Positions 10,267-49,529 of a stretch of 64,000 nt of DNA are shown in pieces. Numbering within the stretch: the first letter of the stretch is position 1; the number at the start of each line of letters is the position of its first letter. The stretch lies in the NCBI RefSeq assembly GCF_025996515.1, contig NZ_BLRH01000060.1:558001-622000 (forward strand). Direction: 5' to 3'. The stretch is from Rhizohabitans arisaemae. Its GTDB lineage: Bacteria; Actinomycetota; Actinomycetes; Streptosporangiales; Streptosporangiaceae. The position numbers were made by a program, and so were the translations under genes. The notes beneath the pieces were generated by a model. That model was not told where the DNA came from. It made no database searches and saw only the letters and a list, made by a program, of their open reading frames with translations.

Positions 10267-10351
10267 ATCAAGTCGCAAAGCCTTATGCCACAAGGGTTTG
10301 CGATGCGCTTACCGCACAAGTACCGACGATCAAGGACGTCTGGGGTATGCG

Positions 10352-12379
10352 TCAGCGGCCCCGGCGCCAGTCCAGTCGGCGCGGCGGCGGCCCGAGGTTG
10401 GGCGGCGGGCGCTCATCCGGGTCCTCCGGCACCTCCGGGATCTCCGTGAGGCCGGGGTCGCCGGCCTCGTCTCGGGCGTGCCTGCGCCGGGGTCCGTCCT
10501 TCGGCTCGGTCCCGGGCCGCGGGCCGGGCAGCGCGGCCCTCCTGGTCTCCTCGAACTCGCTCAGCGTGGTCCCGGGGAAGGTCAGGATCGCGGGGTTGGA
10601 GTCGGCGAGGAGCACCCGGCGCCCGGTGGCGGTGGCGTGCGTGACGATCACCGAGGTGGTGGGCAGCTGCTGGAGCTCGTGCGGCTCGACGATGAACTCC
10701 CGGCTCCGCTGCATCGTCTGGGAGAGCTCCTCGGCGCCCTGCCGGCCCCACCCCGAGGAGGTGATGTCCTCGGGCAGGGTGTCCCGTCCGTTGCCGAGCC
10801 GCCCGAGCCCGAGCCAGGGGCCGTCCCCGCCGGTGGTACGGGCTTCGCCGGAGACCGTGGAGACGTACGGCTCGGCCACGTGGTCGCCGACCGGACAGGC
10901 CTCGGTGAGCTGTGCGATCTCCAGCCGGTGCTCGGTGCCGATGTGCTCGGCCGCGACCCTGGCGTCGTCGGCGTTGCCGAGCCGCATGAAGGCCACGGCC
11001 GCGTGGCCCCGCCCGAGCCGTTCCCGGACCGCCGGGGTGAACGAGCGGTAGGTCAGGACCAGGCCGGAACCCGAGGACTCGCAGGCGTCCATCAGCCGGT
11101 CCAGGACGTCGCCGCGGAGCTTGTCCGCCCCCGCGACGATGATCGTGTGCTGCCACGGGCGGTCCACCGGAGGCGACTGGCGGAGAATGTGGGTGAGGGC
11201 CGTCGCCACATAGGTGCCGAGCACCCGGTTGCCGAAGATCCCCGACTGCCGGTCGGTGGAGACCACCCGGAGCCGCGCCGGGGGCAGGCGGACCGCCTGG
11301 GCGCCGAGCGTCTCCAGCTTGCGGAGCTGGGCCTCCATCGCCCACGCCCGTTCGATCACCACCCGGTCGACGGCGCCCCGCCCGAACAGGGTGCCGATCC
11401 GCTCCAGCTGCGCGACGGTGAGCAGGCCGCTGCGCAGGTCGTCCCGCGGGTCGCCGACCTGGGCGAGCGCCCGGAGCGCGGCGGTGACCTGGTTGATCGT
11501 GGCGTGCTCGCCGAGGACCTCCAGGACCCGCTCCAGGATCGCGTTGTCGAACGAGAGGTCCCTGGTCGCGTCCTCGCTCACACTCACCACCTGGGCGAGG
11601 ACGTCGGCGAAGGCCGCGGGCTCCAGGGTCGCGCCGAGGTCGAGCCGGGGCAGGTCGACGGGGAGCACCCAGACGAGCGGCTCGTCCCCGCCCCGCCGGG
11701 CCAGCTCGATGAGGTCGCCCGCGACGGACCCCTCGGAGAGGTCCAGGACGGTGAGGTGCCCGCCGGAGTAGAGCCGGGTCGCGCCGAGCAGGGTGACCAG
11801 CGCCGACCACCCGTTGAGCGTGCCGCCCACCACGTCGACCCGGTCGATCTCGTCGGGTACGGCGACCGCGTACCAGCTGTGCTGGGTGTCGAAGGCGTCC
11901 CGGCGGACCTCCCACTCGCGATACCGCCGCGCGTGTTCCTCCTGGGCGACGTGGAGCTCCCGGTCGCGGTCCCGGCGGCGCCGTTCGAGCTTGGCCTCCT
12001 CGTCGGCGATCTGCGACCGCACCGCGCGCTCCCCCTGCCCCACCATGAAGGTCAGGATGCCCCCGACCCCCAGGGTCGCCAGCAACCCGAGCAGGGCGAA
12101 CGGCCAGAACAGCATGTCGGTGAGGAAGAGCACGACGAAGAGCAGGCCCAGCGCCGCCATGAGGCCCCGGAACATCTTGACCGGCCGGTTGAGCAGATCC
12201 TCGGCTCGGCGTTCCCGCGGCCCCCACCGGCTCGGCGCCTCAGGGGTCCGGCCGGGCGTGGGACGTCGTGGGGGCGGGCCCGGGTCCGCGTACAGCAGCG
12301 AATACTGCCAGCCCAGGTAGATCCGGTCGGCCTGGAGCCGGCTATGCTGCGCGCGGTCTTCGGGTTGCACCTCGGCCAC
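10352..12379 (-). CDS. large membrane-anchored protein paired with the HerA-like ATPase
   Basis: A 675-residue protein of unrecognised family. It starts at a GTG with GGAGG eight bases upstream. Two adjacent membrane helices lie at about residues 70-115 (GLMAALGLLFVVLFLTDMLF, then LLGLLATLGVGGILTFMV), followed by a charged, probably coiled-coil segment (residues about 117-160). The large cytoplasmic domain has ATPase-fold-like strands (HTIIVAGADKL) but no clear P-loop. The C-terminal 70 residues are proline-rich and charged. With the downstream HerA-like ATPase it may form a membrane-tethered motor complex, which is inference. Confidence 0.7.
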   Translation of the reverse strand: MAEVQPEDRAQHSRLQADRIYLGWQYSLLYADPGPPPRRPTPGRTPEAPSRWGPRERRAEDLLNRPVKMFRGLMAALGLLFVVLFLTDMLFWPFALLGLLATLGVGGILTFMVGQGERAVRSQIADEEAKLERRRRDRDRELHVAQEEHARRYREWEVRRDAFDTQHSWYAVAVPDEIDRVDVVGGTLNGWSALVTLLGATRLYSGGHLTVLDLSEGSVAGDLIELARRGGDEPLVWVLPVDLPRLDLGATLEPAAFADVLAQVVSVSEDATRDLSFDNAILERVLEVLGEHATINQVTAALRALAQVGDPRDDLRSGLLTVAQLERIGTLFGRGAVDRVVIERAWAMEAQLRKLETLGAQAVRLPPARLRVVSTDRQSGIFGNRVLGTYVATALTHILRQSPPVDRPWQHTIIVAGADKLRGDVLDRLMDACESSGSGLVLTYRSFTPAVRERLGRGHAAVAFMRLGNADDARVAAEHIGTEHRLEIAQLTEACPVGDHVAEPYVSTVSGEARTTGGDGPWLGLGRLGNGRDTLPEDITSSGWGRQGAEELSQTMQRSREFIVEPHELQQLPTTSVIVTHATATGRRVLLADSNPAILTFPGTTLSEFEETRRAALPGPRPGTEPKDGPRRRHARDEAGDPGLTEIPEVPEDPDERPPPNLGPPPRRLDWRRGR

Positions 12380-21326: not shown

Positions 21327-23135
21327 TCAAGGCGAGCCTTCCCCCCAGGACGCTCTGACCAGGTCCCGCTCCACCTCCCTGACATAGAGGGCGGCGGCCA
21401 GCCAGGTGCGCGCGTACTCCCCCCGATCGCCGCCGGTCGAACGCCCGAACACGTCGCGGGTCCGCCGGGCGGCCTCGGCGGTGAGGGCCCGGCCGAGCTC
21501 GGCGCCGGTGGCGAACCCGGCCCGGCGCAGCGGCGCGTCGTGGGAGCGTGCGTCCACTCCCCGCCCGGCTTCGGCGACACCCCGGCGGCCTGCGGAGACC
21601 CCCAGCTCCACGAGGCGCCTCACCCGCCACAGGGGTGCTTCGGCAAGCGGGTCCGGACCGGTTTCCACCGCTTGCGGCACCCCGTGGGTCCCCGGCGGCA
21701 GGTGCGCCATCTGGATCAGGTCGTAGCCGAGGTCGGCGTGCCCCTTCCAGTCGGCGGGCAGGGTGAGCGTGTTCTCCGCGCCGGGGACCGGGGCGACGGC
21801 GAGCGGCAGCAGGGTGGCGGAGCGGGCCGGGTCGAGCGTGCCGAGAACGCGGATCCGGGTTCCGGCGGCTCCGGCCAGCATCCGCAGGTTTCCCTGGTGG
21901 GCGAGGGCGGGGTTGGGGTTGGCGGCCACGAGGTGAACGATCGGGCCGTCGGGTTCTCCGGTGCCGCCGAGGAGACGCGTGACGAGCCGGTCGCCCTCGG
22001 CGCCGAGGATCTCCACGTCGCAGCCGAGGAGTCCCGGGCCTTCGTCGTCGAGGATTTCGGCGGCGGCCCGGGCCGGCGGTTTGGCGAAGAGCCCGGCCGC
22101 CGCCCCTTCCGTCCACGGGAGGCAGGCCAGCGGGGTGGCCCGCACGCCCTGCCCGGCGCCGAGCCTGCCGTCGGCGGAGACGGTGGCTCCGGCGATGAGG
22201 AGCCCTCCTCGGCTGAGCTCGGCGTGGCTGATCACGGCGCTGCCCAGGGCCACCGTGGAGGTACGGGCGCCGCGGGCCCGGGAAGCCATGCCGGGCCGCA
22301 CGTCGGCGATCGTGTACCGGCGCCCGTCCTCGGCGATGAGGTGGGTGACGACTCCCCCGTAGCCGGACGCGGTGGCCACGGGCTCCGAGCACAGCCCGTG
22401 GACGCGCAGGCCGCCGTCGCTCTCCCGGTAGGGGCGGCGGACCGTGCCCACCAGGTCGGGCCGGTTCTCCCCGGCGGCGAGGCGGTGGGTGAGCAGGAGC
22501 AGATCGCAGAGAGTGGTGGTGAGGTCGGCGAGACGGTGCCCGGTGCGGCGGTCCCGCATGTTGCGGATGCCGGTGACCAGGGTGAGGGTGAGGGCTTCGG
22601 CCCGGGGCAATCCGGCGCGCCGGGCGCCGTGTGCGGCGCGGAGCAGTTCCGCCTGGAGGACGGCTCCGGCCCCGGGGAGTCCCGCGTCGGGCAGGGCGGA
22701 GGCGACCTCCCAGAGCGCCGCCGCGGCCTCCCGCTGCTTGGCGGTGAGCTCCGGGGTCTTCTCCGCGTCATCGGCGGAGGTTTCCTCCGCCGATGACGGC
22801 GCGGCCGTCTGCTGCGCGAGGTCGGGAGCCACGTCCGTGCGGATGTCGTCGGCGATGGGGCAGGCGCTGAGGACGGCCGCCCGGTGCAGGCAGCGGGGGG
22901 CCAGCAGGCATGAGCAGGTGGCCTGTTCACCCGTGGTGATCGCGGCGCCGCCGGCGGGGTCGAGGGTGACGACGGCGTCCTCTCCCCAGCCGATGTGGAC
23001 GGTGCCGCCGTCCTGCCGCCGGGGCAGGGCGGCGACCTGCTCGACCGCGCCGTCGAGTTTCTTCTTCAGCCGCCCGGTGAGGCTCTCGACCGCGTCTGCG
23101 ACCACCTGCGGGGCGGCGGGGATCAGTGGGGTCAC
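21327..23135 (-). CDS. SWIM zinc-finger protein (YehQ-like)
   Basis: A 602-residue protein with a SWIM zinc finger at residues 74-84 (C74, C76, C82, H84 in CSCLLAPRCLH, the CxC...CxH pattern). The rest is helical and alanine-rich with no recognised enzyme motif. It is the last gene of the MoxR/VWA operon and starts at a GTG overlapping the previous stop (GTGA). E. coli yehQ, in the yehL-yehM-yehP-yehQ cluster, holds the same place. SWIM domains bind nucleic acid or protein; the target is unknown. Confidence 0.85.
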   Translation of the reverse strand: MTPLIPAAPQVVADAVESLTGRLKKKLDGAVEQVAALPRRQDGGTVHIGWGEDAVVTLDPAGGAAITTGEQATCSCLLAPRCLHRAAVLSACPIADDIRTDVAPDLAQQTAAPSSAEETSADDAEKTPELTAKQREAAAALWEVASALPDAGLPGAGAVLQAELLRAAHGARRAGLPRAEALTLTLVTGIRNMRDRRTGHRLADLTTTLCDLLLLTHRLAAGENRPDLVGTVRRPYRESDGGLRVHGLCSEPVATASGYGGVVTHLIAEDGRRYTIADVRPGMASRARGARTSTVALGSAVISHAELSRGGLLIAGATVSADGRLGAGQGVRATPLACLPWTEGAAAGLFAKPPARAAAEILDDEGPGLLGCDVEILGAEGDRLVTRLLGGTGEPDGPIVHLVAANPNPALAHQGNLRMLAGAAGTRIRVLGTLDPARSATLLPLAVAPVPGAENTLTLPADWKGHADLGYDLIQMAHLPPGTHGVPQAVETGPDPLAEAPLWRVRRLVELGVSAGRRGVAEAGRGVDARSHDAPLRRAGFATGAELGRALTAEAARRTRDVFGRSTGGDRGEYARTWLAAALYVREVERDLVRASWGEGSP

Positions 23136-26100
23136 GCGCGTTCTCCACGGAGACGGTCGCCCACCCAGCGGGCGAGGGCGAGGGGGCTGAGCGCGGCCAC
23201 CGGCATGCCCGCGGCGGCGAGCCTGCGGGCGGTCGGCACCGAGTAGCGGGGGGCTCCCCGGTCGTCCAGGGCGGCGCATCCGAGCAGGTGCACCCCTGAC
23301 TGGGCCAGGGCCCGCACCTCGCCCAGCATGCCTTCAGGGGGTGCCCCTTCCTCGAAGTCGCTGACCACGGCGACGAGGGTCCGGCTGGGCACGGTGACCA
23401 GTGAGCGGGCGTGGGCGAGCCCTGCGGCGATGTGGGTGCCGCCGCCCACCTTCACATCGAGCAGGAGGGAGAGCGGATCTTTGACGTGGTCGGTGAAATC
23501 GATGACCTGAGTGGAGAACGCCAGGAAATGCGTGGAGAGGGTGGGCACTCCGGCGAGGATCGACGCGGTGAGCGCCGACCAGATGACCGAGGCCTCCATG
23601 GAGCCGGAGACGTCGACCACGAGGATCATCCGCCAGTCGGCCTGCTGCCGGGCGCGCGTCTTGAACACCGGCCGCTCGGGCACGACGACCGTCCGCCCGT
23701 CGGCCGTACGGCGGGCGTGGGCGAGGTTGGCGCGGAGCGTGCGCGGCAGGTCCAGCGGCCCGCCGGAGCGGCGGGTCGGGCGGGGGGTGGCGAGGCCGCT
23801 CAGCGCGGGCCGCAGCGTGGTCGCCAGCTCCCGGGCCAGTTCCTCGACGATACGGCGGACGAGTGGCCGCAACGCGGCGAGCCGCTGCTCGGGTAGCCCG
23901 CCGGCCAGGGTGAGGACCGCCGTCAGCAGCTCGACCGAAGGCCGCGCCGCAGCCGGGTCGAGCTCGGCCAGGACGTCCAGACGGCCCGCGGCGGCCGCGT
24001 CGGCCAGGACCTCCTCCCTGACGTCGGCGCCGAACAGGGCCTGCAGTTCCTCCGACCAGTCGCGGGCGGACGGAAACGACGCCTCCGTCCCCGCACCCAG
24101 ATCCTGGGAGCCTTCGCCGCTCCCCGCCCCGTACAGTTCGTCGAGGGCTCGCCCGTACCCGCGGCAGGACGCGGGCAGGCCGCCCCGTTCCCGCCCCAGT
24201 AGCAACCGCCACCGATCGACGGCGGCGATGCGGCGCGGTACGGCCGGCGCCCTCGTCGGCGCCGGGGAAGGCGTCGGCTCCGCCGCCTCCGCCACCGGGA
24301 GCGGCAGATTCAGGGCCGCCAGAACGGCCCGCCCCGCCGCATCGGCCCCATGCCACGTCGCCAGCATGCCGGGCGACGCGGTGAGGGTGAGATCGGGGCG
24401 GGTGCCGAGCCGGTCCTGCACCTCGGCGAGGACGCGGTCGCGGGCGGCGGGCCCGAGGATGTCGAAGCCGCCCCGGAGCGCGGGCAGCCGGGCCAGGAAA
24501 CCCTCGTCGGACAGGTTCTCCACCCGCTCCATCAGAGGCCGCAGCGCCGACGGGGCGGCATGGAGCAAGGGCCCGGCGGCGGCGAGGAGACCGGTGAGCC
24601 GTCCGGTGAGAGCCCGGCGGGTCTCGGGCCGGGTGGCGACGTCGACCCAGCCAGCGACCCGTCCCCCCATGACGGCCGAGTCGTCGAGGCCCAGCATGAC
24701 CCGGGCCGCGGTCGCGGCCCCCTGCATCAGCGGCGAGCCGGTGCGGCACAGTTCCGCGAGGCTTTCGTCGAGTCGCAGGCCGAGCCGGTCCTCCGCGGCC
24801 CGCCCGGCGAGACCGGCCAGCGCCACGGCGTCCTCGGGGCGGTCACTGCCCGCCAGCCCGGGGATGCCCGCCACGGCGGTCTCGACGAGCAGGTCGCCGA
24901 GTGCCCGGACCCGGCGGCCGACGCGCTCGTCGGCGGTGAGCCCGGGGATGTGGCCGCGTCCGACCGCTTCCAGCAGGTCGAGGGCGACGACGAGTTCGGC
25001 GAGGGTGGCCGCGGAGGGCAGCAGGGTCTCGGCTTCCGCGACGAGGTCGGCGAGCAGCCCGGGCAGGTCGCAACGGGCGGCGGCCTCCAACTGCCGGAGC
25101 AGCAGCCCGCAGGTGACGCCGTCCGCCCCTTCCCTGCGGTACGCCGCCCGCAACGCGCCTTCGGCGGCCTGCGCCGCGGTGACGCCGCGGACCCCCGCCA
25201 GGTCGAGGCGGGCCGGGACGGCGACGGTCCAGGCCAGCCGCCATTTGGTGGTGAGGGCGGTGCCGTCGCCGGTACCGGCCACCTCCAGCTGCTCCCCGTA
25301 TCCGGCGGAGCATGCGGCGAGCCGGTGCAGCAGCAGTTCTCTGCGTGTGTCCAGGGCGGATCCCAGCGGATTGAGCCTGACCTCTTTGGGACCGGGCTCG
25401 TCGGGGCGGGGCAGCCGGAGGGCCTCCAGGTCGGCTTCGACCGCGGGCCCGAGGCCGGATCGAGGGGTTCCGGGGGCGGTACGGCCGCGCTCGGTGCCGA
25501 CGAGGACGCCTTCCATCGCGCGGGCGAGGGCCCGGCCGCGACCGAGCCGCTCCCCCTGGCCCAGCACCGTGGTGATCGCCTCGACGATCTCCCCGCGGCC
25601 CGGGGCGGGCAGGCCGCGGAGCCGGGCCAGATCGCCGGCGACGCGCAAGGCTTCCGCGGCCTCGCCGGTGCCGGCGGTGTGCCCGGCGTCCCGCAGGGCT
25701 CGGCAGACGGCGGTGACAACGTGGGCCGCCGCCTCCTCGATCTTGGCCGGGTCGCCGCCCGCGGCGTACACCTGCTGCTGCCACCTCGGGTCGCGGATGC
25801 CCGCCGGATAGCCGGAGCGGGAGTCGAGCAGGTCGAAGGAGTACGCCACCAGGGACGTCACCACCTCCCCGCGCGCCTCAGGCGGTACCTCATCACCTGG
25901 GAAAGCGGTCAGGGCGGGTGCGTGGAAGGCCCCGATGACAGCGGTGACGCGGGAGCCGTCGGCCGCCGCCTCGGCGACCACCTTCCGCATGTACGCCTCG
26001 CGGACGAGATCACGCGTCGGTACGCCGCCCGCGGCCTCCGCATCGCGGCGTAACGCCCATCCGACACCGAGTCCGGCACGGCGTACGGCTTCGGGGGCGC

Positions 26101-26587
26101 ATCCCGGTGCGAGGACCTCCACCGCGCGGTCCCACATGTCGTCGCCGTCGCGACCGGTGCTCCTGGCCGCGAGGGCCGCGGCGAAGGTGATCTGCGGCCC
26201 CTGCACCGCCTGGTCCGCGGCGCCGTCCGCCGTGGCGGTGAGGGGCAGGTCGCAGCAGCGGACCCGCACCCCGTGGGCGTAGGCCCAGCGAACGGCGGCG
26301 AGCTCGGGGGAGAAATCGGCGAAGGGGTAGAACGCGAGGCCGCCGTCGGGATAGGCCCCCGCCAACGCGACGGGGGCGCGGGTGCCCGGGTCGGCGAGAT
26401 GGGGCAGCCACCGGTCGAAGTCGGCGGGGAGCTCGACGCAGATCACATCGGGGGCCGCCTCCGCCAGCATGGCCGGCATGACCGAGGCCAGGGCGGGGCT
26501 GTGGTGGCGTACCCCGATGAGGTGGGGTTTGGTCCCGGCGGCCAGTCCTTCCAGCTCGGCGGCGGGATCCAGGCGAAGAGTCGTCAC
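23132..26587 (-). CDS. fused DUF5682 and VWA protein (YehM-YehP-like)
   Basis: A 1151-residue protein. The N-terminal part, from LIGVRHHSPALAS on, is a DUF5682 domain. The C-terminal 165 residues are a von Willebrand A domain with a complete metal site: DVSGS at 992-996, the Thr of GGGT near 1052 and SDF near 1076. In E. coli the two parts are separate genes (yehM, yehP). A proline/alanine-rich linker lies at about residues 755-775. The start is a GTG overlapping the MoxR stop by four bases. VWA proteins typically deliver substrates to their MoxR ATPase. Confidence 0.87.
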   Translation of the reverse strand: MTTLRLDPAAELEGLAAGTKPHLIGVRHHSPALASVMPAMLAEAAPDVICVELPADFDRWLPHLADPGTRAPVALAGAYPDGGLAFYPFADFSPELAAVRWAYAHGVRVRCCDLPLTATADGAADQAVQGPQITFAAALAARSTGRDGDDMWDRAVEVLAPGCAPEAVRRAGLGVGWALRRDAEAAGGVPTRDLVREAYMRKVVAEAAADGSRVTAVIGAFHAPALTAFPGDEVPPEARGEVVTSLVAYSFDLLDSRSGYPAGIRDPRWQQQVYAAGGDPAKIEEAAAHVVTAVCRALRDAGHTAGTGEAAEALRVAGDLARLRGLPAPGRGEIVEAITTVLGQGERLGRGRALARAMEGVLVGTERGRTAPGTPRSGLGPAVEADLEALRLPRPDEPGPKEVRLNPLGSALDTRRELLLHRLAACSAGYGEQLEVAGTGDGTALTTKWRLAWTVAVPARLDLAGVRGVTAAQAAEGALRAAYRREGADGVTCGLLLRQLEAAARCDLPGLLADLVAEAETLLPSAATLAELVVALDLLEAVGRGHIPGLTADERVGRRVRALGDLLVETAVAGIPGLAGSDRPEDAVALAGLAGRAAEDRLGLRLDESLAELCRTGSPLMQGAATAARVMLGLDDSAVMGGRVAGWVDVATRPETRRALTGRLTGLLAAAGPLLHAAPSALRPLMERVENLSDEGFLARLPALRGGFDILGPAARDRVLAEVQDRLGTRPDLTLTASPGMLATWHGADAAGRAVLAALNLPLPVAEAAEPTPSPAPTRAPAVPRRIAAVDRWRLLLGRERGGLPASCRGYGRALDELYGAGSGEGSQDLGAGTEASFPSARDWSEELQALFGADVREEVLADAAAAGRLDVLAELDPAAARPSVELLTAVLTLAGGLPEQRLAALRPLVRRIVEELARELATTLRPALSGLATPRPTRRSGGPLDLPRTLRANLAHARRTADGRTVVVPERPVFKTRARQQADWRMILVVDVSGSMEASVIWSALTASILAGVPTLSTHFLAFSTQVIDFTDHVKDPLSLLLDVKVGGGTHIAAGLAHARSLVTVPSRTLVAVVSDFEEGAPPEGMLGEVRALAQSGVHLLGCAALDDRGAPRYSVPTARRLAAAGMPVAALSPLALARWVGDRLRGERA

Positions 26588-27729
26588 TGAAGGTGCTTCC
26601 TCGCGTCCCAGAGACGGCGCCACAGGGCGGCGCCGTCCTCGGCCCGGCGGCGGACCGGTCCGTCCCAGTAGCCGAGGAGGCGGCCGTGGTCGGCCGGGTC
26701 GTCCTTGCGGACCACGCCGAGCAGGTGGCCGGGAAGCAGGTCGAGCGGGTCCCCGGCGGGCAGATAGGCGGCGGCGACACCGATCGAGGCGGCGACCTGG
26801 ACGGCTTCGGCGGTGGACATGACGGTGCCGGGCCGTTCGACGTCCCAGCCTTCGCCGGAGCGGCCGGTACGCAGGTCGCGGAAGACGGTGACGAGCGCGT
26901 CCAGCACGGCGTCGTCGACGGAGAACGCCGCTCCCGCCCGTTCCACGACGGCCGTGGCCTGGCCGCGGATGAGCGCGGTTTCGGCGTCGGCGTCGGCGAT
27001 GGGGTCGACGGTCTCGAAGTTGAAGCGGCGCTTCAGCGCGGCCGACATCTCCGACACGCCGCGGTCGCGGAGGTTGGCGGTGGCGATGACGGTGAAGCCG
27101 GGCGCCGCCGAGACGGTGGCGTGATCGGTGCCGGAAAGCTCGGGCACGCTGAGCCGCCGATCCGACAGGATCGACACGAGCGCGTCCTGCACCTCCGGCA
27201 GGCACCGGGTGATCTCCTCGATCCGGGCGATCCGGCCGGTCCGCATCGCGGTCAGCACCGGCGAGGCGACCAGGGCGTCGGAGCTGGGGCCGTGGGCCAG
27301 CAGCATGGCGTAGTTCCAGCCGTAGCGGAAGGCGTCCTCGGTGGTCCCTGCGGTGCCCTGCACGGTGAGGGCGCCGGTGCCGCTGACCGCGGCCGACAAT
27401 AGCTCCGACAGCATCGACTTGGCCGTGCCGGGCTCGCCGGTGAGCAGCAGGCCCCGCTCCCCGGCCAGGGTGACGACGCACCGCTCGACGAGGGAACGCT
27501 CACCGACGAACTTGACGGGGATGACGCGGGACGGCACCCCGGGGGCGCCGACGCTCTCCCCGCCGCTGCCGCAGATGAAGGTGACCACGGCGCGTGGGGT
27601 GAGCGCCCAGCCGGGCGGGCGGGGGCCGCCGTCTGCGGCGGCGAGAAAGGCCAGCTCGTCGGCGTGGCGCTCCTCGGCGGGAACGATCTGGCGGGCGGTC
27701 GGTGCCCGCTCTTCGGCAATCGCTGTCAT
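26584..27729 (-). CDS. MoxR-family AAA ATPase (YehL-like)
   Basis: A 381-residue MoxR-type AAA+ ATPase. The P-loop is GEPGTAKS at residues 98-105 and a Walker B-like RIARIEEI follows near residue 170; sensor segments include VIATANLRDRGVSEM. MoxR ATPases work as chaperone-like remodelling rings together with a VWA partner, here encoded next. The ATG at 27729 has AGAAGGA ahead of it and is 68 bases after the stop of the giant gene, the only real gap in the operon. Confidence 0.9.
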   Translation of the reverse strand: MTAIAEERAPTARQIVPAEERHADELAFLAAADGGPRPPGWALTPRAVVTFICGSGGESVGAPGVPSRVIPVKFVGERSLVERCVVTLAGERGLLLTGEPGTAKSMLSELLSAAVSGTGALTVQGTAGTTEDAFRYGWNYAMLLAHGPSSDALVASPVLTAMRTGRIARIEEITRCLPEVQDALVSILSDRRLSVPELSGTDHATVSAAPGFTVIATANLRDRGVSEMSAALKRRFNFETVDPIADADAETALIRGQATAVVERAGAAFSVDDAVLDALVTVFRDLRTGRSGEGWDVERPGTVMSTAEAVQVAASIGVAAAYLPAGDPLDLLPGHLLGVVRKDDPADHGRLLGYWDGPVRRRAEDGAALWRRLWDARKHLQ

Positions 27730-27797
27730 CGATGTCCTTCTGGATGTGAAGTGGGGCGGGGCCGCCGCGGTGGGCGACCCCGCATGGCATGGCCAGG

Positions 27798-30700
27798 TCA
27801 GCGGCGGCGGTTCGGCCGGGTGTCGAGGGTCCCGAAGCGGGGGGTGTCCCCGTCCTGGACCCGCTGCCACGCCTTCCGGTACAGGTCGGCCATCGGCTCG
27901 GTGGGCACGGTGGTCCCCAGATGCGCGCGTTCCCCGCCGACCGACGCGAACAGCGGGGTCTTCCACTGCTCCATGCCGACCGCGTCGTTCCACGCGCCCG
28001 GGAGGAACATGGAGCGGCCCGCCCCTCGCCGGGTGCCGTCCACGATCAGGTCGCCGCCCGCCAATTCGGCTTGGGCGGCCTTCAACCGGGCGGGCTTCCA
28101 CCCGGTCCAGCGCCGGGTGTTCCGGTCAGCCGGGTCGGGCATGGCCAGCAGCATCAGGTAGAGGGTGGCGGCGTCCTCACTCACGCCGTACGTCTTGGCC
28201 GCTTCCACGACGACGTCGGGAACGGAGCGGGAAGGGTCCTGCGGCCACCACACACCCGCTTCGTCCCGCTGTCCCGCCGCGGGGTCGCCCGGGTTCTCCA
28301 GCAGGGAGGCGAAGGCGTCGTCGTGGGCGAGCCGCACGGCGTCCAGCACCACCGGGAAGGGATGTGACTCCTGGAGCATGGACAGGAGCAACCGCACGTG
28401 CGGATCGTCGAGTCCTTCTTCGGTGAAGCGGGCGTAATCGAGTGCCGGGAGCGGCATCAGGTCGGCCAAGGCGAGGATGACGGGGCCGTAGCGCTCGTAG
28501 AGCGGCGTCGTCTCACAGGGGGTGCCTGCGACCTCACGAAAACGCTCGAGATCGACATAGTTGTCCAGCGAGAGGAGGATCCCGGGGGCCGACAGCCTCG
28601 CCCGCACCGCGGCGAGGCCCGCGGGCAGCCGGTCCCGCAGCGGGTCGCCCACCGGAAGCCGGTGAGCGAGCCAGGCGAGCATCGGCACGGCATGGCTCAG
28701 CGTCGCGGGGGTGAACCCGTCGTCGCCGTCGGACCTGGCGCGATCCCCTTCGATCCTCCACTGCAGATCGCGGGTCAGCCCACGCGAACGCTCCGGCTCC
28801 AGAACGTCCCGCAGAAGCGGCCGGCTCAGGGACTTGGGGACTGCGTACAGCAGCTCTTCCGGTACGGGCAGCCGCCTGCCGAACTTTCCGTTCCAGATCT
28901 CCGCCGCCTCGGCCACCCGCGGCCCGGCGGTCCGGAGCTCGGCCGGGTCCTCCGGCACCAGGGCGGAGAGGACCTGGGCGAGGAACCTCTCCTCGCAACG
29001 CCCCAGTTCCCCCTCGGCGAAGCGGGCGTCGGCCGCCTTCACCCCGAGAACGGCCCGCGCCTCGGCGGTGAGCCCGTCGGGGGCACCGGCGATGATCAGC
29101 TTTGCGACGGTCTGGGTGACCCCGGTAAGACGGGCGAACTCCTCGGCTGCCTCGGGCCGCCACGGGATGGGGCCGTCCGCCCGTACCCGTACGAACGCAG
29201 CGAGCACCTCCGCGCCAAGCCCGGGGAAGGCGGGCCGGTCGTCCCTGACGACGAACGGGGCGGGCGGCTCGGCCCCGCCCTCCGGGTCGTGGACCAGGAC
29301 CGTGAAAACATCGGCGCCGCGATCTCTCCCATGCTCCAGCAGCGCGAACAGCGCCGGTCCGCCGGACGGGATCAGCCCGGGCCGCCACCGGAAATCCTGA
29401 CCCGCCTCGGCGGCCTGCGCGGTGAGGCCGAGAGTGAGCAGCCGCCACCGCCCCTCCACACCGCCGAGCCCCGCCAAGGCCGAAATGAGGGCTTCGGCGG
29501 CCTCGGAGTGCTCGGCGGCGACGGCCGGGGAAACCGCCCGGTAGACGACGGCCGGGAGCACCTCCAGGGCACGCCACCACCGAAACCCCGTCCGCGGCAG
29601 TTCAGGGGCGGGGGCCGCGGAGAACGGAAACACCTGTTCACCCCACGGCCAATCGGTCGCGCCTCCCTCCCGGGCGGCATCCGCCAGCGCGGCGATCTGC
29701 GTCAGCCCGTACGCCTCCGGTTTGGCGTAGTACCCGTTCACGTCGACCAGCCCGGCGAGGGCGGCGGCGATCGCGTCGTCGCCGGGGCCGGCGACCAACC
29801 GCGGTGCGTTCCCCGGTGTGAGCGACGCTTCGATCCTCTTGACGACCTCGGCCCGGTTCCGGACCTGCTCGGCGGCGAGGCGCACCACCGCCGCGATACC
29901 GGCAAGCAACTTGGCCGAGGTCACTTCAGGCAGTACGGAGGCGACCCACGCCACGTCGTCGGGCCCGCTCCGAACGACGGGCACCGCGGCCAGCAGCCCG
30001 CGTGCCGTCTCGGCGTCGACGCGGCGCAGTGCCGCCGACCCCTGCGGGTCGCACGGCCGCAGGTGGTGCCAGTAGCGGGGCGGCGGCAGCAGGCGGGTGG
30101 CGTCCGCGTAGAGGCCGGGAACACCGTCCCGCTTGAACGTCGCCGTGCACACCCCTTCCTCGTCGAGGAGTGACAGGTGCCAGGTCCCTCTCGACATCAG
30201 AACCCGCGGCCGGTCCGATCCGGGGAACATCACCAGCCTCAGGATCCGCTCGTCGCTCCCGGGAACGGCGACGGTCCGCCCCGCCGCGTCCTGTGCCTTC
30301 AGCGTGCCGTCCGCGAGCCGGGCGACGTGCAGCGCGTAAACCCCGCCGGTGGGCCGGCCCACCGGGGAATCGGCGAAATCGGGGGAGTCGGCCGACATGG
30401 GCACCGTGAAGCCCGACACACGCTGTGCGCCCTCCGGCGCGGCGGCGTCGGCGTCGGCCAGGAAAGCCGGCAGGCTCGCCCGGCCGACGTTCCCGGTCGC
30501 CGGGTCGTACTCGTGCAGGGTCCAATCGGGGCGTTCGCCCTGCCAGATCCAGAAGGAAACCCCGTCGCCCATCAGGTGCAGGCCCGAGCCCGCCGAGGCG
30601 TCGCCGGCCCGCAGAATTCCGGCCGTGGTCACCCGCCCGCCGCCGGGAGCGGGATAGGCCGGCGGCAGGTTGTCCCGGAACCAGTACATACTGACGGCGG

Positions 30701-32621
30701 TCTGCGGCTTCACCCCCTTGGTGTCGAGGTTGAGCACCCTGCCCGGGTCTTCATGCCAGTAGCCCTTGATCCGTTCGTCGCCCTCGTCCTCCCAGAAGAC
30801 GAGCAGCTGCCCGTCCACGAGGTGGAAGCCCGGTTCGCCCCTACGGCTTATGCCGGTGACACGCAGCTGGTGGGTGAGCAGAGGACCGTCGCGGCCGAGC
30901 ACCCGGACCTCACGTCCACCGGCCACGATCGGGCCCGGCCACGCGTCGGCGACGAGCAGGGCCGCCGGGTTGTCGGCGGGGACCAGGTCGGCCAACGCCT
31001 CCTCCCACGCGGGCCAGGTGAACTCGTCCATGAGCCCGGTGCGCAGGGTGCGGGCCAGCGCCTGCGCGACATCGGCGTCGAGCACCCTCCGCACCTCGGC
31101 CTCGGCCAGGCCGAGCGCCGCACCGGGGATCCACGACAGCTCCTCCAGCTGCTCGGGCAGCGAGGGCAGGCCCCCCTCCGTGGCGGCATCCGCGACTTCG
31201 CGAACCCAGGAGGCCACCAGCGTGGCGCCTCCGGGACTGCCGGCGAGCAACCGCAGGTGGTTCTCCATTCTGGCGTCGTACTGCAGACTGCTCAGCGCCT
31301 GATGAAAACCCTTGATGAAACGGGGGTCGGCCGCCAGCAGGGTCAGATCCCGGCGCCCCTCCGATGTCGCCCACGGTTCGATGGCCGCCTGATAGCCGTG
31401 GTCCGACACGACGACCGGTATCTCCAACTCCAGCATCAGGTCAAGCAGATCGATGTCGCCCGGCGCTTGGATACCTCCACCGCGCAGTTCGGCGCGGAGC
31501 ACATCGGCGGCCCGCCGCACCAGGTCGGACAGGAGCGGAAGAGCGCTCACGTGACGCCGGCCGCGCATGCGGAAGGCGAGGAACCGGTTCAGCCAGCCGG
31601 CCGTCCCGTCCTTCGGCCGGCCCGGAGCCTCGGCATCCACGAGCGCGGCGGTCGCACCGCCCTGTTCGAGCATGTCCAGCCAGATGCCGACAAGCTCATC
31701 GTCGGACTCAGCCGGCATGATCCCCAGCAGATGGATCCGCACCGCCTCGTCCTTGCGGGCAAGCGCGATGATCTCCTTCTGCTGCGACCTCCACCAACCG
31801 GCGGACGCCCGCAGTGTCCCCGGCTGGAAGAGGAGCACACGCAGGAACTCCTCCTCTGCCGCGACCCCGGCCGGACCGGCCGCGACCGCTATCCGCCGAA
31901 GCTCCTTGGAGATCTGCGGGGACGGCGGCAGACCACCCGCCGTCCGCTGCGTACAGAGATCGGCGAAGCGCCGCAACGCCTCCTCGGATGGGACCCTCGC
32001 CGTCAACTCCTTGGCATAGTCGGCCAGGACCTTGACCGGCAGCGCACCCGCCAGGGCGAACTCCAGGAAGACCGAGTCGAGGCGCTCCTCGTCGACGGGC
32101 AGACCGTGTTCCCTCTCCGCGCGGCGGGCCAGCCCGAACAACTGCGCGGCATAGCGCGCGTTCTCCGCCGAGAGGAAAACCCGCCCGGCCTGCTCGTAGA
32201 AGGTGGGCAGGAAATGCGGAACCGATGCGGCGAGACGTTTCGCGATCGCCAGGTAGGAATCCAGTGCCGCCTTCGGCTTCGTCCGAGCCTGCCGCGCCGC
32301 CCGGTCCAGCTCGGGCACGACGGCCAGCGCGCCGTTGCCGTCCTGCGGATGGTGGACGAGGATCCACTCGGGGAACCCCAGCGCCTTGCGGTGCCCGAAC
32401 CCGACCGCGACCGGCTCCGCGGCGGCCTCGAAACCCAGGAACGCGGTGGCCGCGTCCTCGGCGGGGCCCAGTTCCGCCGCGGCCAGCCTGACCACCACGC
32501 GGTCGTCGAGTCCCGCATGGCGATAGGAGCGCGCCGTCATCGGCACCGCGTCGGCCGCCCGCGCCTCCGCCTCGGCCCCCGGCGGAAGAATGCCACCGGC
32601 CTTCACCACAGATCCGCTCAT
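27798..32621 (-). CDS. giant protein of the MoxR/VWA operon
   Basis: A 1607-residue protein of unknown function, mostly helical with several beta segments in the middle (RVLGRDGPLLTHQLRVTGIS, FHLVDGQLLVFW) that look like propeller-type repeats. No signal peptide, membrane segment, P-loop or enzyme motif is seen. Its ATG overlaps the stop of the DUF4132 gene (ATGA), and the MoxR gene follows 68 bases later. In E. coli the DUF4132 protein YehI is one long chain; here the large part and the DUF4132 part are two coupled genes, which I infer by position and size. Confidence 0.75.
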   Translation of the reverse strand: MSGSVVKAGGILPPGAEAEARAADAVPMTARSYRHAGLDDRVVVRLAAAELGPAEDAATAFLGFEAAAEPVAVGFGHRKALGFPEWILVHHPQDGNGALAVVPELDRAARQARTKPKAALDSYLAIAKRLAASVPHFLPTFYEQAGRVFLSAENARYAAQLFGLARRAEREHGLPVDEERLDSVFLEFALAGALPVKVLADYAKELTARVPSEEALRRFADLCTQRTAGGLPPSPQISKELRRIAVAAGPAGVAAEEEFLRVLLFQPGTLRASAGWWRSQQKEIIALARKDEAVRIHLLGIMPAESDDELVGIWLDMLEQGGATAALVDAEAPGRPKDGTAGWLNRFLAFRMRGRRHVSALPLLSDLVRRAADVLRAELRGGGIQAPGDIDLLDLMLELEIPVVVSDHGYQAAIEPWATSEGRRDLTLLAADPRFIKGFHQALSSLQYDARMENHLRLLAGSPGGATLVASWVREVADAATEGGLPSLPEQLEELSWIPGAALGLAEAEVRRVLDADVAQALARTLRTGLMDEFTWPAWEEALADLVPADNPAALLVADAWPGPIVAGGREVRVLGRDGPLLTHQLRVTGISRRGEPGFHLVDGQLLVFWEDEGDERIKGYWHEDPGRVLNLDTKGVKPQTAVSMYWFRDNLPPAYPAPGGGRVTTAGILRAGDASAGSGLHLMGDGVSFWIWQGERPDWTLHEYDPATGNVGRASLPAFLADADAAAPEGAQRVSGFTVPMSADSPDFADSPVGRPTGGVYALHVARLADGTLKAQDAAGRTVAVPGSDERILRLVMFPGSDRPRVLMSRGTWHLSLLDEEGVCTATFKRDGVPGLYADATRLLPPPRYWHHLRPCDPQGSAALRRVDAETARGLLAAVPVVRSGPDDVAWVASVLPEVTSAKLLAGIAAVVRLAAEQVRNRAEVVKRIEASLTPGNAPRLVAGPGDDAIAAALAGLVDVNGYYAKPEAYGLTQIAALADAAREGGATDWPWGEQVFPFSAAPAPELPRTGFRWWRALEVLPAVVYRAVSPAVAAEHSEAAEALISALAGLGGVEGRWRLLTLGLTAQAAEAGQDFRWRPGLIPSGGPALFALLEHGRDRGADVFTVLVHDPEGGAEPPAPFVVRDDRPAFPGLGAEVLAAFVRVRADGPIPWRPEAAEEFARLTGVTQTVAKLIIAGAPDGLTAEARAVLGVKAADARFAEGELGRCEERFLAQVLSALVPEDPAELRTAGPRVAEAAEIWNGKFGRRLPVPEELLYAVPKSLSRPLLRDVLEPERSRGLTRDLQWRIEGDRARSDGDDGFTPATLSHAVPMLAWLAHRLPVGDPLRDRLPAGLAAVRARLSAPGILLSLDNYVDLERFREVAGTPCETTPLYERYGPVILALADLMPLPALDYARFTEEGLDDPHVRLLLSMLQESHPFPVVLDAVRLAHDDAFASLLENPGDPAAGQRDEAGVWWPQDPSRSVPDVVVEAAKTYGVSEDAATLYLMLLAMPDPADRNTRRWTGWKPARLKAAQAELAGGDLIVDGTRRGAGRSMFLPGAWNDAVGMEQWKTPLFASVGGERAHLGTTVPTEPMADLYRKAWQRVQDGDTPRFGTLDTRPNRRR

Positions 32622-33490
32622 GCCCGGCTCTCCTCTTCCTCGACCCTGCGCCCCGCGTACAGCCATGCCGCCATGCGCATTCCCTCCGACCAGGCGACGG
32701 GGCCGACGTCGGCCAAATCCAGCCGCCTGCCGTCCGGACCGTGCCAGGCGAGCGCACCCGTCTCCGCCTCGTCGTCGTAGTAGTACGGCTCGCCGATCCA
32801 CACGGCGGCCTCCACCACGTGCTCCCCGTCCCGGACGCGGCAGGTGGCGTACCCTCCGCTCACCCGGTAACCGCTGTTCACCGCACGTGCCGCCAGGCCG
32901 AACCTGGAGGAGTACGTGCCACCGATGAACGTCTCCACCTGGTGCTTTCCGGCGAGCGGCTCGCCGGGTTTACGCCAGGTGGCGCGGTGGATCTGCTCGA
33001 CCTTCTGGGTCACGTTCAGCTCGGCGGCGAATTCCCGCAGGTCCTCCAGGTCCTCCAGCAGGACCGGGTGGGGAATCGTGACGGTCGCGGGCGCGATTCG
33101 GACGGTCTCCCCGTCCAGGTTCACGAGCTGAAGTTCACCGGCGCCGGTGACGCCGCGCAGCAGCCCGACGTCATCGGGGCCGGCGCCGACCACCACCGTG
33201 TCCCGCAGGGCGAGCCGCCAGGCCTCGTCCGGCCACACCGAGGTGAGGACCTCGACCGGAATCGGTAGTGAGGAGACCATCCAGGCGTCGACCTGGGCCA
33301 CGCAGTCCTGCGCGTGGCGATCCAGCCATTCGGCGAGGCGGCGGAGTCGATCCACTTCGGCATGGTCACGGAGCGCCTTCGGCATGCTTTTCAGCAATTT
33401 CCCCGCTGAACGGCCGCCGGTGGGGCGCGCCGCCACCTTGCCGTCGATCAGAGCGATCTCATAACCGTCGCCCGCTGCCAGCCATCCCAA
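32618..33490 (-). CDS. DUF4132 domain protein
   Basis: A 290-residue protein whose middle (GELQLVNLDGETVRI, then VTIPHPVLLEDLEDLREFAA, then VTQKVEQIHRATW) matches the DUF4132 domain of MolR/YehI. The start is TTG at 33490, forced by a stop just upstream; AAGGG lies 11 bases before it. The ATG of the next gene overlaps its stop. It begins the 12-kb coupled gene set with MoxR, VWA and SWIM proteins; a possible 59-residue gene ends six bases upstream. Confidence 0.75.
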   Translation of the reverse strand: MGWLAAGDGYEIALIDGKVAARPTGGRSAGKLLKSMPKALRDHAEVDRLRRLAEWLDRHAQDCVAQVDAWMVSSLPIPVEVLTSVWPDEAWRLALRDTVVVGAGPDDVGLLRGVTGAGELQLVNLDGETVRIAPATVTIPHPVLLEDLEDLREFAAELNVTQKVEQIHRATWRKPGEPLAGKHQVETFIGGTYSSRFGLAARAVNSGYRVSGGYATCRVRDGEHVVEAAVWIGEPYYYDDEAETGALAWHGPDGRRLDLADVGPVAWSEGMRMAAWLYAGRRVEEEESRA

Positions 33491-33496
33491 CGTTGC

Positions 33497-33676
33497 TCAG
33501 CCCTTCATGTCGTGAGGATCCACTCCGCCCACGGCATCCGCCGGTGGAGTGATGCGGGGAACCGTAGCGCCGTCTTCCGACAAAACCCATATGCGGACGA
33601 ACCATCGGCGATCGCCCAACTGTTTCGCCAGAATCCGGGCGCCATCGCGCCCCGCTGACACCTGCGGGAACGTCAC
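33497..33676 (-). CDS. possible 59-residue protein ahead of the DUF4132 gene
   Basis: A GTG at 33676 with GGAG about six bases upstream opens a 59-codon frame (VTFPQVSAGRDGARILAKQL ... DRRWFVRIWVLSEDGATVP) that ends six bases before the DUF4132 start. The sequence is protein-like, with a plausible strand-turn-strand, but I recognise no family. The frame stays open to 33958, but that part crosses palindromic repeats and is unlikely to be coding. If translated, it would couple to the operon. Confidence 0.4.
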   Translation of the reverse strand: MTFPQVSAGRDGARILAKQLGDRRWFVRIWVLSEDGATVPRITPPADAVGGVDPHDMKG

Positions 33677-33720
33677 GCCGGGCTCCGGAGCCCAGCCACC
33701 TGGCCAAGGCGCCGGCGACC

Positions 33721-34092
33721 CGCGAGCCCGCCGGAGGCCGTACCGGACCCGCCCGCTCTCCAGAAGACCGATCCGGTACGGGCTTCGCCGGAACGCTCGA
33801 CGGCCGAAAACCCGAACACCTCCCTCCCCGGACATCGGTGGACGTACGGGCTTCGCCTGGCCCCCGGCAGGCGAGCTCAGCTCATCCGCATCCCCGCGAG
33901 CCCGCCGGAGGCCGTACCGGACCTGCCTTAACTCCGGCCCGCCCTCCACGCAACCCATCCGGTACGGGCTTCGCCGGAACGCTCGACGGCCGAAGTCACG
34001 AGCACGCCGTCCTTACCGGACATACGGGCTTCGCCTGGCCGTCGGCAGCCTAATCCGTATCCCCGCGAGCCACCGCAGGCCGTACCGGACCG
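33721..34092. repeat. array of GGTACGGGCTTCGCCGG palindromic repeats
   Basis: Two composite units of about 172 bases, starting at 33721 and 33895, with part of a third at 34065. Each has CGCGAGCCCGCCGG-AGGCCGTACCGG, then a spacer, then an inverted copy ATCCGGTACGGGCTTCGCCG, then TACGGGCTTCGCCTGG. The GTACGG and CCGTAC arms pair to make hairpins. Degenerate copies are at about 1526-1545 and 1757-1778. The stretch lies between the DUF4132 operon and the nucleotidase terminator and contains no gene. Confidence 0.75.
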
Positions 34093-34107
34093 GGGTGAGA
34101 CGCCAAA

Positions 34108-43723: not shown

Positions 43724-43797
43724 GCGGGTGTAGTTCAGTGGCAGAACATCAGCTTCCCAAGCTGACAGTGCGGGTTCGATTCCCGTCACCCGCTCCA
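43724..43797 (+). tRNA. tRNA-Gly (anticodon CCC)
   Basis: The acceptor stem GCGGGTG/CACCCGC, D arm, anticodon stem TCAGC/GCTGA with CCC at 43756-43758, and T arm GCGGG-TTCGATT-CCCGT fold fully over 71 bases, with an encoded CCA at 43795-43797. Its 3' half from 43754 is the integration site of the element that follows, and remains functional because the element restores the same sequence. Confidence 0.95.
43754..43795 (+). repeat. attL core (tRNA 3' half)
   Basis: 42 bases identical to 58217-58258, running from TTCCCAAGCTGAC to CACCCGCTC, covering the anticodon loop to past the acceptor stem. A third copy (40 bases) is at 59335-59374. Confidence 0.93.
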
Positions 43798-43803
43798 CCC
43801 ACA

Positions 43804-43850
43804 AAGGCCCAGGTCAGGGGTTGAGTCCCGACCCGGGCCTTGATCTTTTT
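43804..43850 (+). terminator. element-borne terminator for the tRNA
   Basis: AAGGCCC at 43804-43810 pairs with GGGCCTT at 43835-43841, followed by TTTTT at 43846-43850. It replaces the chromosomal terminator separated from the tRNA by integration. Confidence 0.75.
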
Positions 43851-43870
43851 ACCGGACTAGATGATCTTCC

Positions 43871-43891
43871 GTGCGATTAGCGTGCGATTAG
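43871..43891 (+). repeat. integrase arm-type site, left
   Basis: GTGCGATTAG occurs twice, 11 bases apart (43871 and 43882). The same 20 bases lie in the same direction near the right end at 58113-58132. It overlaps the integrase stop codon. Position and pairing fit binding sites for the N-terminal arm-binding domain of the integrase. Confidence 0.75.
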
Positions 43892-48557: not shown

Positions 48558-48652
48558 AAACTGAACACCTCTTTCAAAGATCGGGATGTCTTGGGAGAGA
48601 GAAGTGATCGGGGGCCAGGGGAAGTTGGCGCTTCCCGTGGCCCCACCCGAGA

Positions 48653-49404: not shown

Positions 49405-49416
49405 ACGCCATCTACC

Positions 49417-49528: not shown

Positions 49529-49529
49529 T

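What the first reader, a model, noticed from the sequence alone, without database searches (positions are those of the whole stretch)
21327..33676. 12-kb coupled operon: DUF4132, giant protein, MoxR, fused DUF5682-VWA, SWIM
Gene content equals the E. coli yehI-yehL-yehM-yehP-yehQ set, whose function is still poorly known. Four of the five larger junctions are overlaps or near-overlaps. Seen here: DUF5682 and VWA are fused in one chain, and the DUF4132 domain is separate from a 1607-residue partner. MoxR/VWA systems elsewhere act as chaperones or in conflict systems. The fusion fixes the stoichiometry of two parts and suggests that they act as one subunit.
Basis: partly seen in the sequence, partly recalled or inferred. 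Interest (0 to 1): 0.65.

Follow-up and report, generated by a model that had tools for sequence, protein, structure and literature searches.

The report
Mobile-looking actinomycete MoxR–VWA–propeller gene cassette
Five neighbouring genes, kept in the same order in many actinomycetes but at different places in their genomes, encode an energy-driven protein-remodelling machine joined to a possible hydrolase, with a giant propeller protein that is sometimes copied in tandem; this looks like an undescribed accessory, perhaps defensive, system.

Summary
Five same-strand genes fill 21327-33490: DUF4132 (290 aa), a 1607-aa giant, MoxR, a DUF5682-VWA fusion (1151 aa) and a SWIM protein. Three of four junctions are 4-nt overlaps, the fourth a 68-nt gap. 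The ordered cassette, with the fusion, is complete in 66 of 79 named actinomycete loci. It is not the direct E. coli yeh counterpart: the same bacterial family has a separate yeh-like split set, and the giant shows no relation to YehI. The giant's predicted structure has a central beta-propeller. Two genomes have four tandem giants before one MoxR. Cassette loci share flanking genes in 6 of 171 pairs, canonical loci in 105 of 253: accessory behaviour. DUF5682 has a TIKI/TraB-like motif, only suggestively supported. Best reading: a MoxR-VWA-controlled hydrolase complex with exchangeable propeller sensors. No function was tested.

The parts
32618..33490 (-). DUF4132 protein, 290 aa, TTG start; stand-alone DUF4132 module matching the C-terminal part of YehI
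   Evidence: PF13569 E 1.5e-25; hhalign to a YehI-type profile, from about YehI residue 950 to near its end, E 4.5e-7
27798..32621 (-). giant protein, 1607 aa: conserved N-terminal region, helical region, central beta-propeller, variable linker, conserved C-terminal region
   Evidence: GC by codon position 0.77/0.53/0.86 for the ORF
30024..31061 (-). beta-propeller of the giant (residues ~521-866)
   Evidence: AlphaFold2 model of residues 420-1607, pLDDT 86.0, pTM 0.72; the listed Foldseek and VIA matches (Z 5.2-7.3) are nearly all propellers by name
27822..28304 (-). most conserved C-terminal region of the giant (residues 1440-1600), used as probe A6
26584..27729 (-). MoxR AAA+ ATPase, 381 aa (YehL type)
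   Evidence: AAA_5 E 8.7e-36; 69-85% identity to 16 cassette relatives, 49% to E. coli YehL and to the own canonical MoxR
27415..27438 (-). P-loop GEPGTAKS (GXXXTAKS variant)
   Evidence: GEPGTAKS in 34 of 39 MoxR ORFs
23132..26587 (-). DUF5682-VWA fusion, 1151 aa, GTG start overlapping the MoxR stop by 4 nt
23912..26476 (-). DUF5682 part (Pfam residues 38-892); the motif G25-x-R-H-H-S-P lies just before the Pfam envelope, E52 and H222 inside it
   Evidence: 635 bits; conservation
23162..23827 (-). VWA_CoxE domain (residues 921-1142) with complete MIDAS (D992, S994, S996, T1051, D1077)
   Evidence: 214 bits; MIDAS residues invariant in 17 aligned sequences; Z 17.5 to a VWA domain
21327..23135 (-). 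SWIM zinc-finger protein, 602 aa, GTG start overlapping the fusion stop by 4 nt
22884..22916 (-). SWIM motif CxCx5CxH (C74, C76, C82, H84)
   Evidence: invariant in 16 aligned sequences
33719..34095 (.). repeat-rich stretch upstream of the first gene, possible control region
   Evidence: 72-nt, 35-nt, 31-nt and 22-nt direct repeats; no sigma-70-like promoter found

Best explanation
An accessory (patchy, relocating) actinomycete system in which a MoxR ATPase ring and a VWA domain act as a chaperone/co-chaperone pair, with the VWA covalently joined to DUF5682, a likely TIKI/TraB-like hydrolase (peptidase or esterase) that is probably the effector or processing enzyme. The giant propeller protein, which can be tandem-duplicated in front of one conserved MoxR, is most likely the sensor or client-binding subunit. 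DUF4132 and the SWIM zinc-finger protein are adaptors. Proposed cycle: at rest the giant, DUF4132, SWIM and the fusion form an inactive complex. Recognition of a ligand by a giant lets the MoxR ring, docked on the VWA MIDAS, use ATP to remodel the complex and free or align DUF5682 for hydrolysis. Shown: gene set, order, fusion, motifs, propeller prediction, tandem giants, variable sites. Inferred: contacts, hydrolase activity, sensing, adaptor roles, any role in defence.
For: Order and strand conserved, complete and fused, in 66 of 79 named loci. Fusion in 26 of 27, one group at 100% support. P-loop, MIDAS and SWIM residues intact. DUF5682 E and second H invariant in 49 of 49 sequences, with GxRHHxP; hhalign to TraB-family proteins puts both motif sites in register (E 0.024 and 0.61). 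Giant propeller. Tandem giants: four giants and two DUF4132 genes before one MoxR in G102 and in G016. MoxR is 69-85% identical where the giant is 30-50%. Giant present in 81 of 341 genomes of the family. Flanks shared in 6 of 171 pairs, against 105 of 253 for the canonical set and a mean of 44.8 of 171 after down-sampling.
Against: No PADLOC model matches the five proteins beyond one meaningless hit (E 0.038). The window copy sits among ordinary genes (GlnR-like and LmeA-like on one side; 5'-nucleotidase, GNAT and PHO4 on the other), not in a defence island. The giant is not uniquely variable: SWIM identities are 31-57% and fusion 49-70%. Array members and species pairs alike vary most in the linker, not the propeller, and no selection test was made. 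Two loci, L185 and L209, have no MoxR between giant and fusion. The second TraB alignment (0.61) is no better than the four unrelated controls (0.14-0.63), Ere gave only 0.076, and the DUF5682 fold was not tested alone. Giants without other cassette genes in the fetched stretch exist.
Confidence: 0.5

Rival explanations
1. A maturation chaperone: MoxR and the VWA fusion insert a cofactor into, or assemble, the giant protein, in the manner of RavA-ViaA, NorQ-NorD or CbbQ-CbbO. The giant is the enzyme or scaffold being matured, not a sensor.
For: Chaperone-like maturation roles are reported for MoxR proteins (introduction passages of PMC3893208; passages of PMC7159879). The giant is upstream of MoxR in all 67 complete cassettes, as client genes often are (recalled). 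Tandem giants could be several clients.
Against: The giant has no recognised enzyme domain in Pfam and no solved-structure relative by sequence. Patchy presence and shifting sites are unusual for a metabolic enzyme. It does not by itself explain the conserved DUF5682 motif.
Confidence: 0.27
2. A stress or DNA-damage response module in which the SWIM and DUF4132 proteins bind nucleic acid and MoxR-VWA remodels repair complexes.
For: DUF4132 and WGR genes are up-regulated when DdrO is depleted in Deinococcus radiodurans (one passage of PMC8533742). SWIM motifs are zinc fingers thought to bind DNA or protein (recalled).
Against: No link between those Deinococcus genes and this fused clade was shown. 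No damage-response promoter was looked for here.
Confidence: 0.13
3. A relic or chance cluster without joint function.
For: Giants without other cassette genes nearby and two MoxR-less cassettes exist.
Against: Five genes held in order across Streptomyces, Streptosporangium, Nonomuraea, Micromonospora and other genera, with key motifs intact in the aligned members.
Confidence: 0.02

Closest known systems
E. coli yehI-yehL-yehM-yehP-yehQ operon (YehL subfamily of MoxR)
   Same: MoxR of the same type (49% identity, same GEPGTAKS P-loop), DUF5682, VWA, a SWIM gene last, DUF4132 present
   Different: E. coli has DUF5682 and VWA split and a 1210-aa YehI. Here they are fused, DUF4132 is alone, and the giant propeller protein is added. 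The same bacterial family has a separate yeh-like split locus with one or two YehI-like genes
Actinobacterial SWIM-DUF5691-MoxR-DUF5682-VWA operon (present in the own genome, C33)
   Same: MoxR, DUF5682, VWA and a SWIM gene, co-directional
   Different: DUF5691 in place of DUF4132 and giant; SWIM first; split DUF5682/VWA (30 of 30); more often in shared surroundings (105 of 253 pairs share flanks)
MoxR-vWA-beta-propeller ternary conflict systems (Kaur et al. 2020, PMC7159879, passages read)
   Same: MoxR with the GXXXTAKS P-loop, a vWA protein, a third protein with a propeller
   Different: There the propeller is fused C-terminal to vWA; here VWA ends the fusion and the propeller is in the giant. 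MoxR is below the bpMoxR cut-off (19.9 of 27 bits). That class is reported mostly from bacteroidetes, planctomycetes, verrucomicrobia and proteobacteria, this cassette was found in actinomycetes. 'Yeh', 'SWIM', 'WGR' and 'MolR' have 0 occurrences in that main text
TIKI/TraB/erythromycin-esterase superfamily (PMC6254334, passages read)
   Same: DUF5682 N-terminus has GxRHH, a glutamate on a following strand and a later GxxH, in register with the TraB-family protein YbaP
   Different: Profile match is weak (E 0.024); no catalytic test; DUF5682 carries a long helical region after it

Membership tests
MoxR-vWA-beta-propeller ternary system | MoxR with GXXXTAKS P-loop | tested here: met
   GEPGTAKS; also in E. 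coli YehL, so not specific
MoxR-vWA-beta-propeller ternary system | MoxR matches the bpMoxR family above its cut-off | tested here: not met
   19.9 bits against 27
MoxR-vWA-beta-propeller ternary system | beta-propeller C-terminal to vWA in the same chain | tested here: not met
   VWA is residues 921-1142 of 1151
MoxR-vWA-beta-propeller ternary system | third component with TPR and beta-propeller | tested here: inconclusive
   giant has a central propeller; no TPR was identified and residues 1-419 were not modelled
YehL-type (E. coli yeh) operon | MoxR, DUF5682, VWA, SWIM and DUF4132 encoded together | tested here: met
YehL-type (E. coli yeh) operon | full-length YehI-like protein | tested here: not met
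   only the DUF4132 protein aligns (E 4.5e-7); giant against a YehI-type profile of 10 sequences, some of them partial, gives E 0.3
YehL-type (E. coli yeh) operon | separate DUF5682 and VWA genes | tested here: not met
   fused
TIKI/TraB/Ere superfamily (DUF5682) | conserved His/Glu motif set | tested here: met
   G23, R25, H26, H27, P29, E50, H214 in 49 of 49, own-canonical numbering. Canonical rows were picked with the pattern R[HN]H[SGA]P, so the first motif is partly circular for those 30; E50 and H214 are not. The divergent C20 copy did not pass the pattern and was left out
TIKI/TraB/Ere superfamily (DUF5682) | profile similarity to known members | tested here: inconclusive
   TraB E 0.024 and 0.61, both in register; four control profiles E 0.14-0.63; Ere E 0.076; known relatives Ere against TraB only 0.85. 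The Ere alignment came from a crude frame pick
TIKI/TraB/Ere superfamily (DUF5682) | TIKI fold | tested here: inconclusive
   whole-fusion search was filled by VWA matches, DUF5682 part barely tested
SWIM zinc finger | CxCxnCxH | tested here: met
   invariant in 16 aligned sequences; Pfam score just under cut-off (19.1 of 19.6)
VWA with MIDAS | DxSxS, T, D | tested here: met
   17 aligned sequences; VWA fold Z 17.5
beta-propeller fold (giant) | toroid of four-stranded blades | tested here: met
   AlphaFold2 pLDDT 86; nearly all listed matches are propellers by name, Foldseek best E 4.6e-3 (none at 0.001), Z 5.2-7.3. Fold class only: Z is under 8, no relatedness is claimed
known anti-phage defence systems (PADLOC 2.0.0) | match to a PADLOC protein model | tested here: not met
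   one meaningless hit (E 0.038) for 5 proteins at E 0.1

The most novel reading that the evidence does not exclude
A new modular immune system of actinomycetes: one MoxR ring and one TIKI-like hydrolase-VWA fusion serve an expandable array of giant propeller sensors, each recognising a different invader signal, with ATP-driven remodelling as the safety threshold. The array grows and diverges by tandem duplication and the cassette moves between genomes.
Probability: 0.28. Interest if true: 0.82.

Novelty: new variant of a known kind. Interest (0 to 1): 0.56.

Why it matters
I found no assigned function for the YehL branch of MoxR ATPases in the papers listed. This cassette gives a compact set with a fused partner (simpler biochemistry), a putative active site to mutate, and natural arrays of paralogous giants that point to a specificity subunit. 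If it is defensive, it would be a widespread actinomycete system outside the 2023 PADLOC models. If it is a maturation chaperone, the likely client is identified.

Tried and rejected
Giant = YehI body: rejected. Giant related to DUF5691: no sign (E 0.19 against one sequence). SWIM gene like YehQ beyond the zinc motif: only 26 columns around the motif align (E 0.17, one sequence). Sequence relatives in the PDB: none for the fusion up to E 1, one meaningless hit for the giant (E 0.2). The first genome-contig scan with the single giant found no relative, a sensitivity artefact: with the C-terminal alignment, 520 of 571 candidate stretches were relatives and the best 80, 79 distinct loci, were kept. 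Island reading from mobile genes next to the window copy: not supported; the pSAM2-like element starts 10 kb away. Promoter scan found nothing but covers only a sigma-70 consensus. Ere-family similarity for DUF5682 is weak. TraB family gave no match in 41 relatives, so comparison proteins came from E. coli and plasmid records. The fold search of the whole fusion did not test the DUF5682 part; no Ere, ChaN or TraB structure is among its listed rows, which decides nothing. Paper searches (listings) showed no description of this cassette; no paper holds 'DUF5682'. The top was mostly papers on unrelated subjects and was of no use. On checking this report I found that the giant in L069 is no orphan: it lies about 3 kb beyond the SWIM gene of the G102 cassette, and that L047's genome has a giant about 3 kb beyond its SWIM gene on the other strand.
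Full report
WHAT IS THERE. On the minus strand, 33490 down to 21327, five genes follow each other: a 290-aa DUF4132 protein, a 1607-aa giant without a Pfam match, a 381-aa MoxR ATPase, an 1151-aa protein with DUF5682 and VWA in one open frame, and a 602-aa SWIM protein. DUF4132/giant, MoxR/fusion and fusion/SWIM overlap by 4 nt; giant/MoxR is a 68-nt gap. Codon-position GC fits coding for the ORFs listed (a rough caller that used the longest ORF and missed the MoxR frame).

THE WINDOW'S GENOME. It is 8.33 Mb in 63 contigs and has three DUF5682 loci: the window; a canonical split set on C33 (SWIM, DUF5691, MoxR, DUF5682, VWA); and a divergent set on C20 in which a 950-aa open frame ending in VWA precedes MoxR and a divergent DUF5682.

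CONSERVATION. DUF5682 was found in 122 of 150 genomes of the same family. I picked 16 stretches with frames and scores like the window's: DUF5682 and VWA are fused in 16 of 16. DUF4132, giant, MoxR, fusion and SWIM all lie in that order in 11 of them (L038, L039, L040, L042, L043, L044, L045, L049, L051, L052, L053), with variations: L042 has a further giant before DUF4132, L052 only a partial giant, L053 a second partial one. L041 and L050 are cut by contig ends, L046 has tandem giants with DUF4132 beyond the stretch, L047 lacks the giant between DUF4132 and MoxR, and in L048 no SWIM was called. Of 20 further stretches chosen through the giant, 11 hold the full set (in L087 the fusion runs over two frames), 2 are upstream parts of tandem arrays and 7 hold a giant with no other cassette gene in the stretch; one of these seven, L069, lies about 3 kb beyond the SWIM gene of the G102 cassette, so 6 are orphans as far as seen. 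In named genomes, 66 of 79 loci hold DUF4132-giant-MoxR-fusion-SWIM complete and fused; one more (L164) is complete with DUF5682 and VWA in two overlapping frames. Of the other 12, six stretches are short because the contig ends there (L138, L160, L163, L174, L180, L182), in L155 the stretch ends inside DUF5682, L150 has DUF5682 without a detected VWA or SWIM, L169 and L212 hold a giant only, and L185 and L209 lack MoxR. Genera include Streptomyces, Streptosporangium, Nonomuraea, Micromonospora, Plantactinospora, Catenulispora, Actinocorallia and Actinomadura. That list is the best 79 of 520 relatives, so it favours close ones. The giant occurs in 81 of 341 genomes of the family (one of them a weak, short match) and 22 of 68 genera, and in 9 of 396 genomes sampled across the phylum, one of them weak.

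FUSION. In a quick tree of 61 DUF5682 sequences the 27 fused rows (window included) plus the frame-broken L087 form one group with 100% SH-aLRT support. The tool warns of long branches for E. coli and the C20 copy, so their placement is unsure. One fusion event is the simplest reading.

OTHER FLAVOURS. In the same bacterial family I find (i) a yeh-like split set with one or two YehI-like genes upstream of MoxR (L127-L132; my gene caller missed MoxR in L127, VWA in three and SWIM in one of the six), scoring 391-431 bits against YehM; (ii) the SWIM-DUF5691-MoxR-DUF5682-VWA set, all five parts found in 23 of 23 stretches examined; (iii) the window cassette, whose fusion scores 107 bits against YehM; and (iv) the C20 type. 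So the window set is a divergent subtype, not the yeh operon. The window DUF4132 protein aligns with the C-terminal part of YehI (E 4.5e-7), while the giant does not align with a 10-sequence YehI-type profile (E 0.3). In both (i) and (iii) it is a gene upstream of MoxR that can be duplicated in tandem.

THE GIANT. Conservation is high at the N-terminus and around residues 1441-1600, lowest at 921-1080. An AlphaFold2 model of residues 420-1607 from 38 sequences has mean pLDDT 86.0 and pTM 0.72. Giant residues ~556-830 are almost all beta, mostly in four-stranded units. Foldseek's best hit has E 4.6e-3 and none reaches 0.001, yet the 50 rows listed by each program are nearly all beta-propellers by name, aligned over giant residues ~521-866 with Z 5.2-7.3. 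I claim the fold class, not homology. Residues 1-419 were not modelled. Among eight pairs of array members compared, identity is 26-60% in the linker and 70-96% in the C-terminal region. Pairs from different species show the same ranking, so this is no sign of special selection in arrays. Identity to the window's protein is 30-50% for the giant, 31-57% for SWIM, 49-70% for the fusion, 41-72% for DUF4132 and 69-85% for MoxR.

FUSION PROTEIN. The VWA has all MIDAS residues in the 17 aligned sequences and a clear VWA fold (Z 17.5). DUF5682 has G-x-R-H-H-x-P, a glutamate on a following strand and a later GxxH; E50 and H214 (own-canonical numbering) are in 49 of 49 sequences, as is the first motif, for which the 30 canonical rows had been picked by pattern (the divergent C20 copy did not pass and was left out). 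This resembles the TIKI/TraB/Ere superfamily (2His/2Glu in PMC6254334, passages only). Profile comparison with five TraB-family sequences gives two local alignments, both in register on these sites (E 0.024, 0.61); four unrelated control profiles gave 0.14-0.63, so only the first stands out, and known relatives Ere and TraB gave just 0.85 against each other. I treat a hydrolase as likely, not shown.

ACCESSORY BEHAVIOUR. Among 90 complete cassette loci (some genomes twice), the first genes beside the cassette fall into 64 families for 87 upstream and 64 for 74 downstream neighbours. Within the family, 6 of 171 pairs of 19 cassette loci share a flanking protein, against 105 of 253 pairs of 23 canonical loci (20 of them picked from the best-scoring matches). 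Canonical stretches show more flanking genes (8.9 against 5.0 per locus), but down-sampling them to equal numbers still gives a mean of 44.8 of 171 (range 24-72 in 500 draws). Gene calls here are rough. The canonical set thus keeps its surroundings more often than the cassette. This fits a horizontally moving accessory system; rearrangement near chromosome ends could contribute.

LITERATURE. Kaur et al. 2020 (PMC7159879; passages read) describe MoxR-vWA ternary conflict systems and propose that vWA captures a peptide and MoxR releases the substrate in an altered conformation. Two of their classes, one with propellers, often have the GXXXTAKS P-loop, which the window MoxR and E. coli YehL also have. 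The defining feature of the propeller class, a propeller C-terminal to vWA, is not met here. YehL is named as a MoxR subfamily in PMC3893208 (passages). PMC8533742 (one passage) reports a DUF4132-encoding operon up-regulated on DdrO depletion in Deinococcus. No paper in the library holds DUF5682.

VERDICT. Observation confirmed with small corrections. Best explanation: MoxR-VWA-controlled TIKI-like effector with exchangeable giant propeller sensors (0.5); main rival: a maturation chaperone for the giant (0.27).

Noticed in passing
window 43724-50318: pSAM2-like integrative element: tRNA-Gly(ccc) next to an integrase (43888-45228), RepSA replication initiator (45464-47257), FtsK/SpoIIIE-type protein (47127-48557) and GntR/UTRA regulator (49530-50318).
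   Followed up: partly
window 7150-12379: HerA-like ATPase (1047 aa; PADLOC HerA and mad8 models match, HerA_C E 4.4e-9) beside a 675-aa protein with no Pfam or PADLOC family, a possible defence pair.
   Followed up: partly
window 53109-56819: 1236-aa protein with 14 WD40 repeats in a stretch of lower GC (0.59-0.62).
   Followed up: no
window 33719-34095: Two to three imperfect copies of 22-72 nt repeats spaced ~168-186 nt upstream of the DUF4132 gene.
   Followed up: no
L185 and L209 (Streptomyces malachitofuscus, Streptomyces sp. DH5): Cassettes in which the fusion frame follows the giant directly and no MoxR was found.
   Followed up: partly
L077, L078, L081, L082, L085, L086: Giants with no other cassette gene in the fetched stretch; in L078 the contig begins 2.6 kb away.
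   Followed up: no
L069 (G102): A further giant about 3 kb beyond the SWIM gene of the G102 cassette, same strand.
   Followed up: no
L005 (own genome C20): Third DUF5682 locus: VWA at the end of a 950-aa frame, MoxR in an 810-aa frame, divergent DUF5682, with a Cpn60-like ORF upstream.
   Followed up: partly
L127-L132: yeh-like split loci with one or two YehI-like genes upstream of MoxR, echoing E. coli yehF-yehH-yehI.
   Followed up: partly
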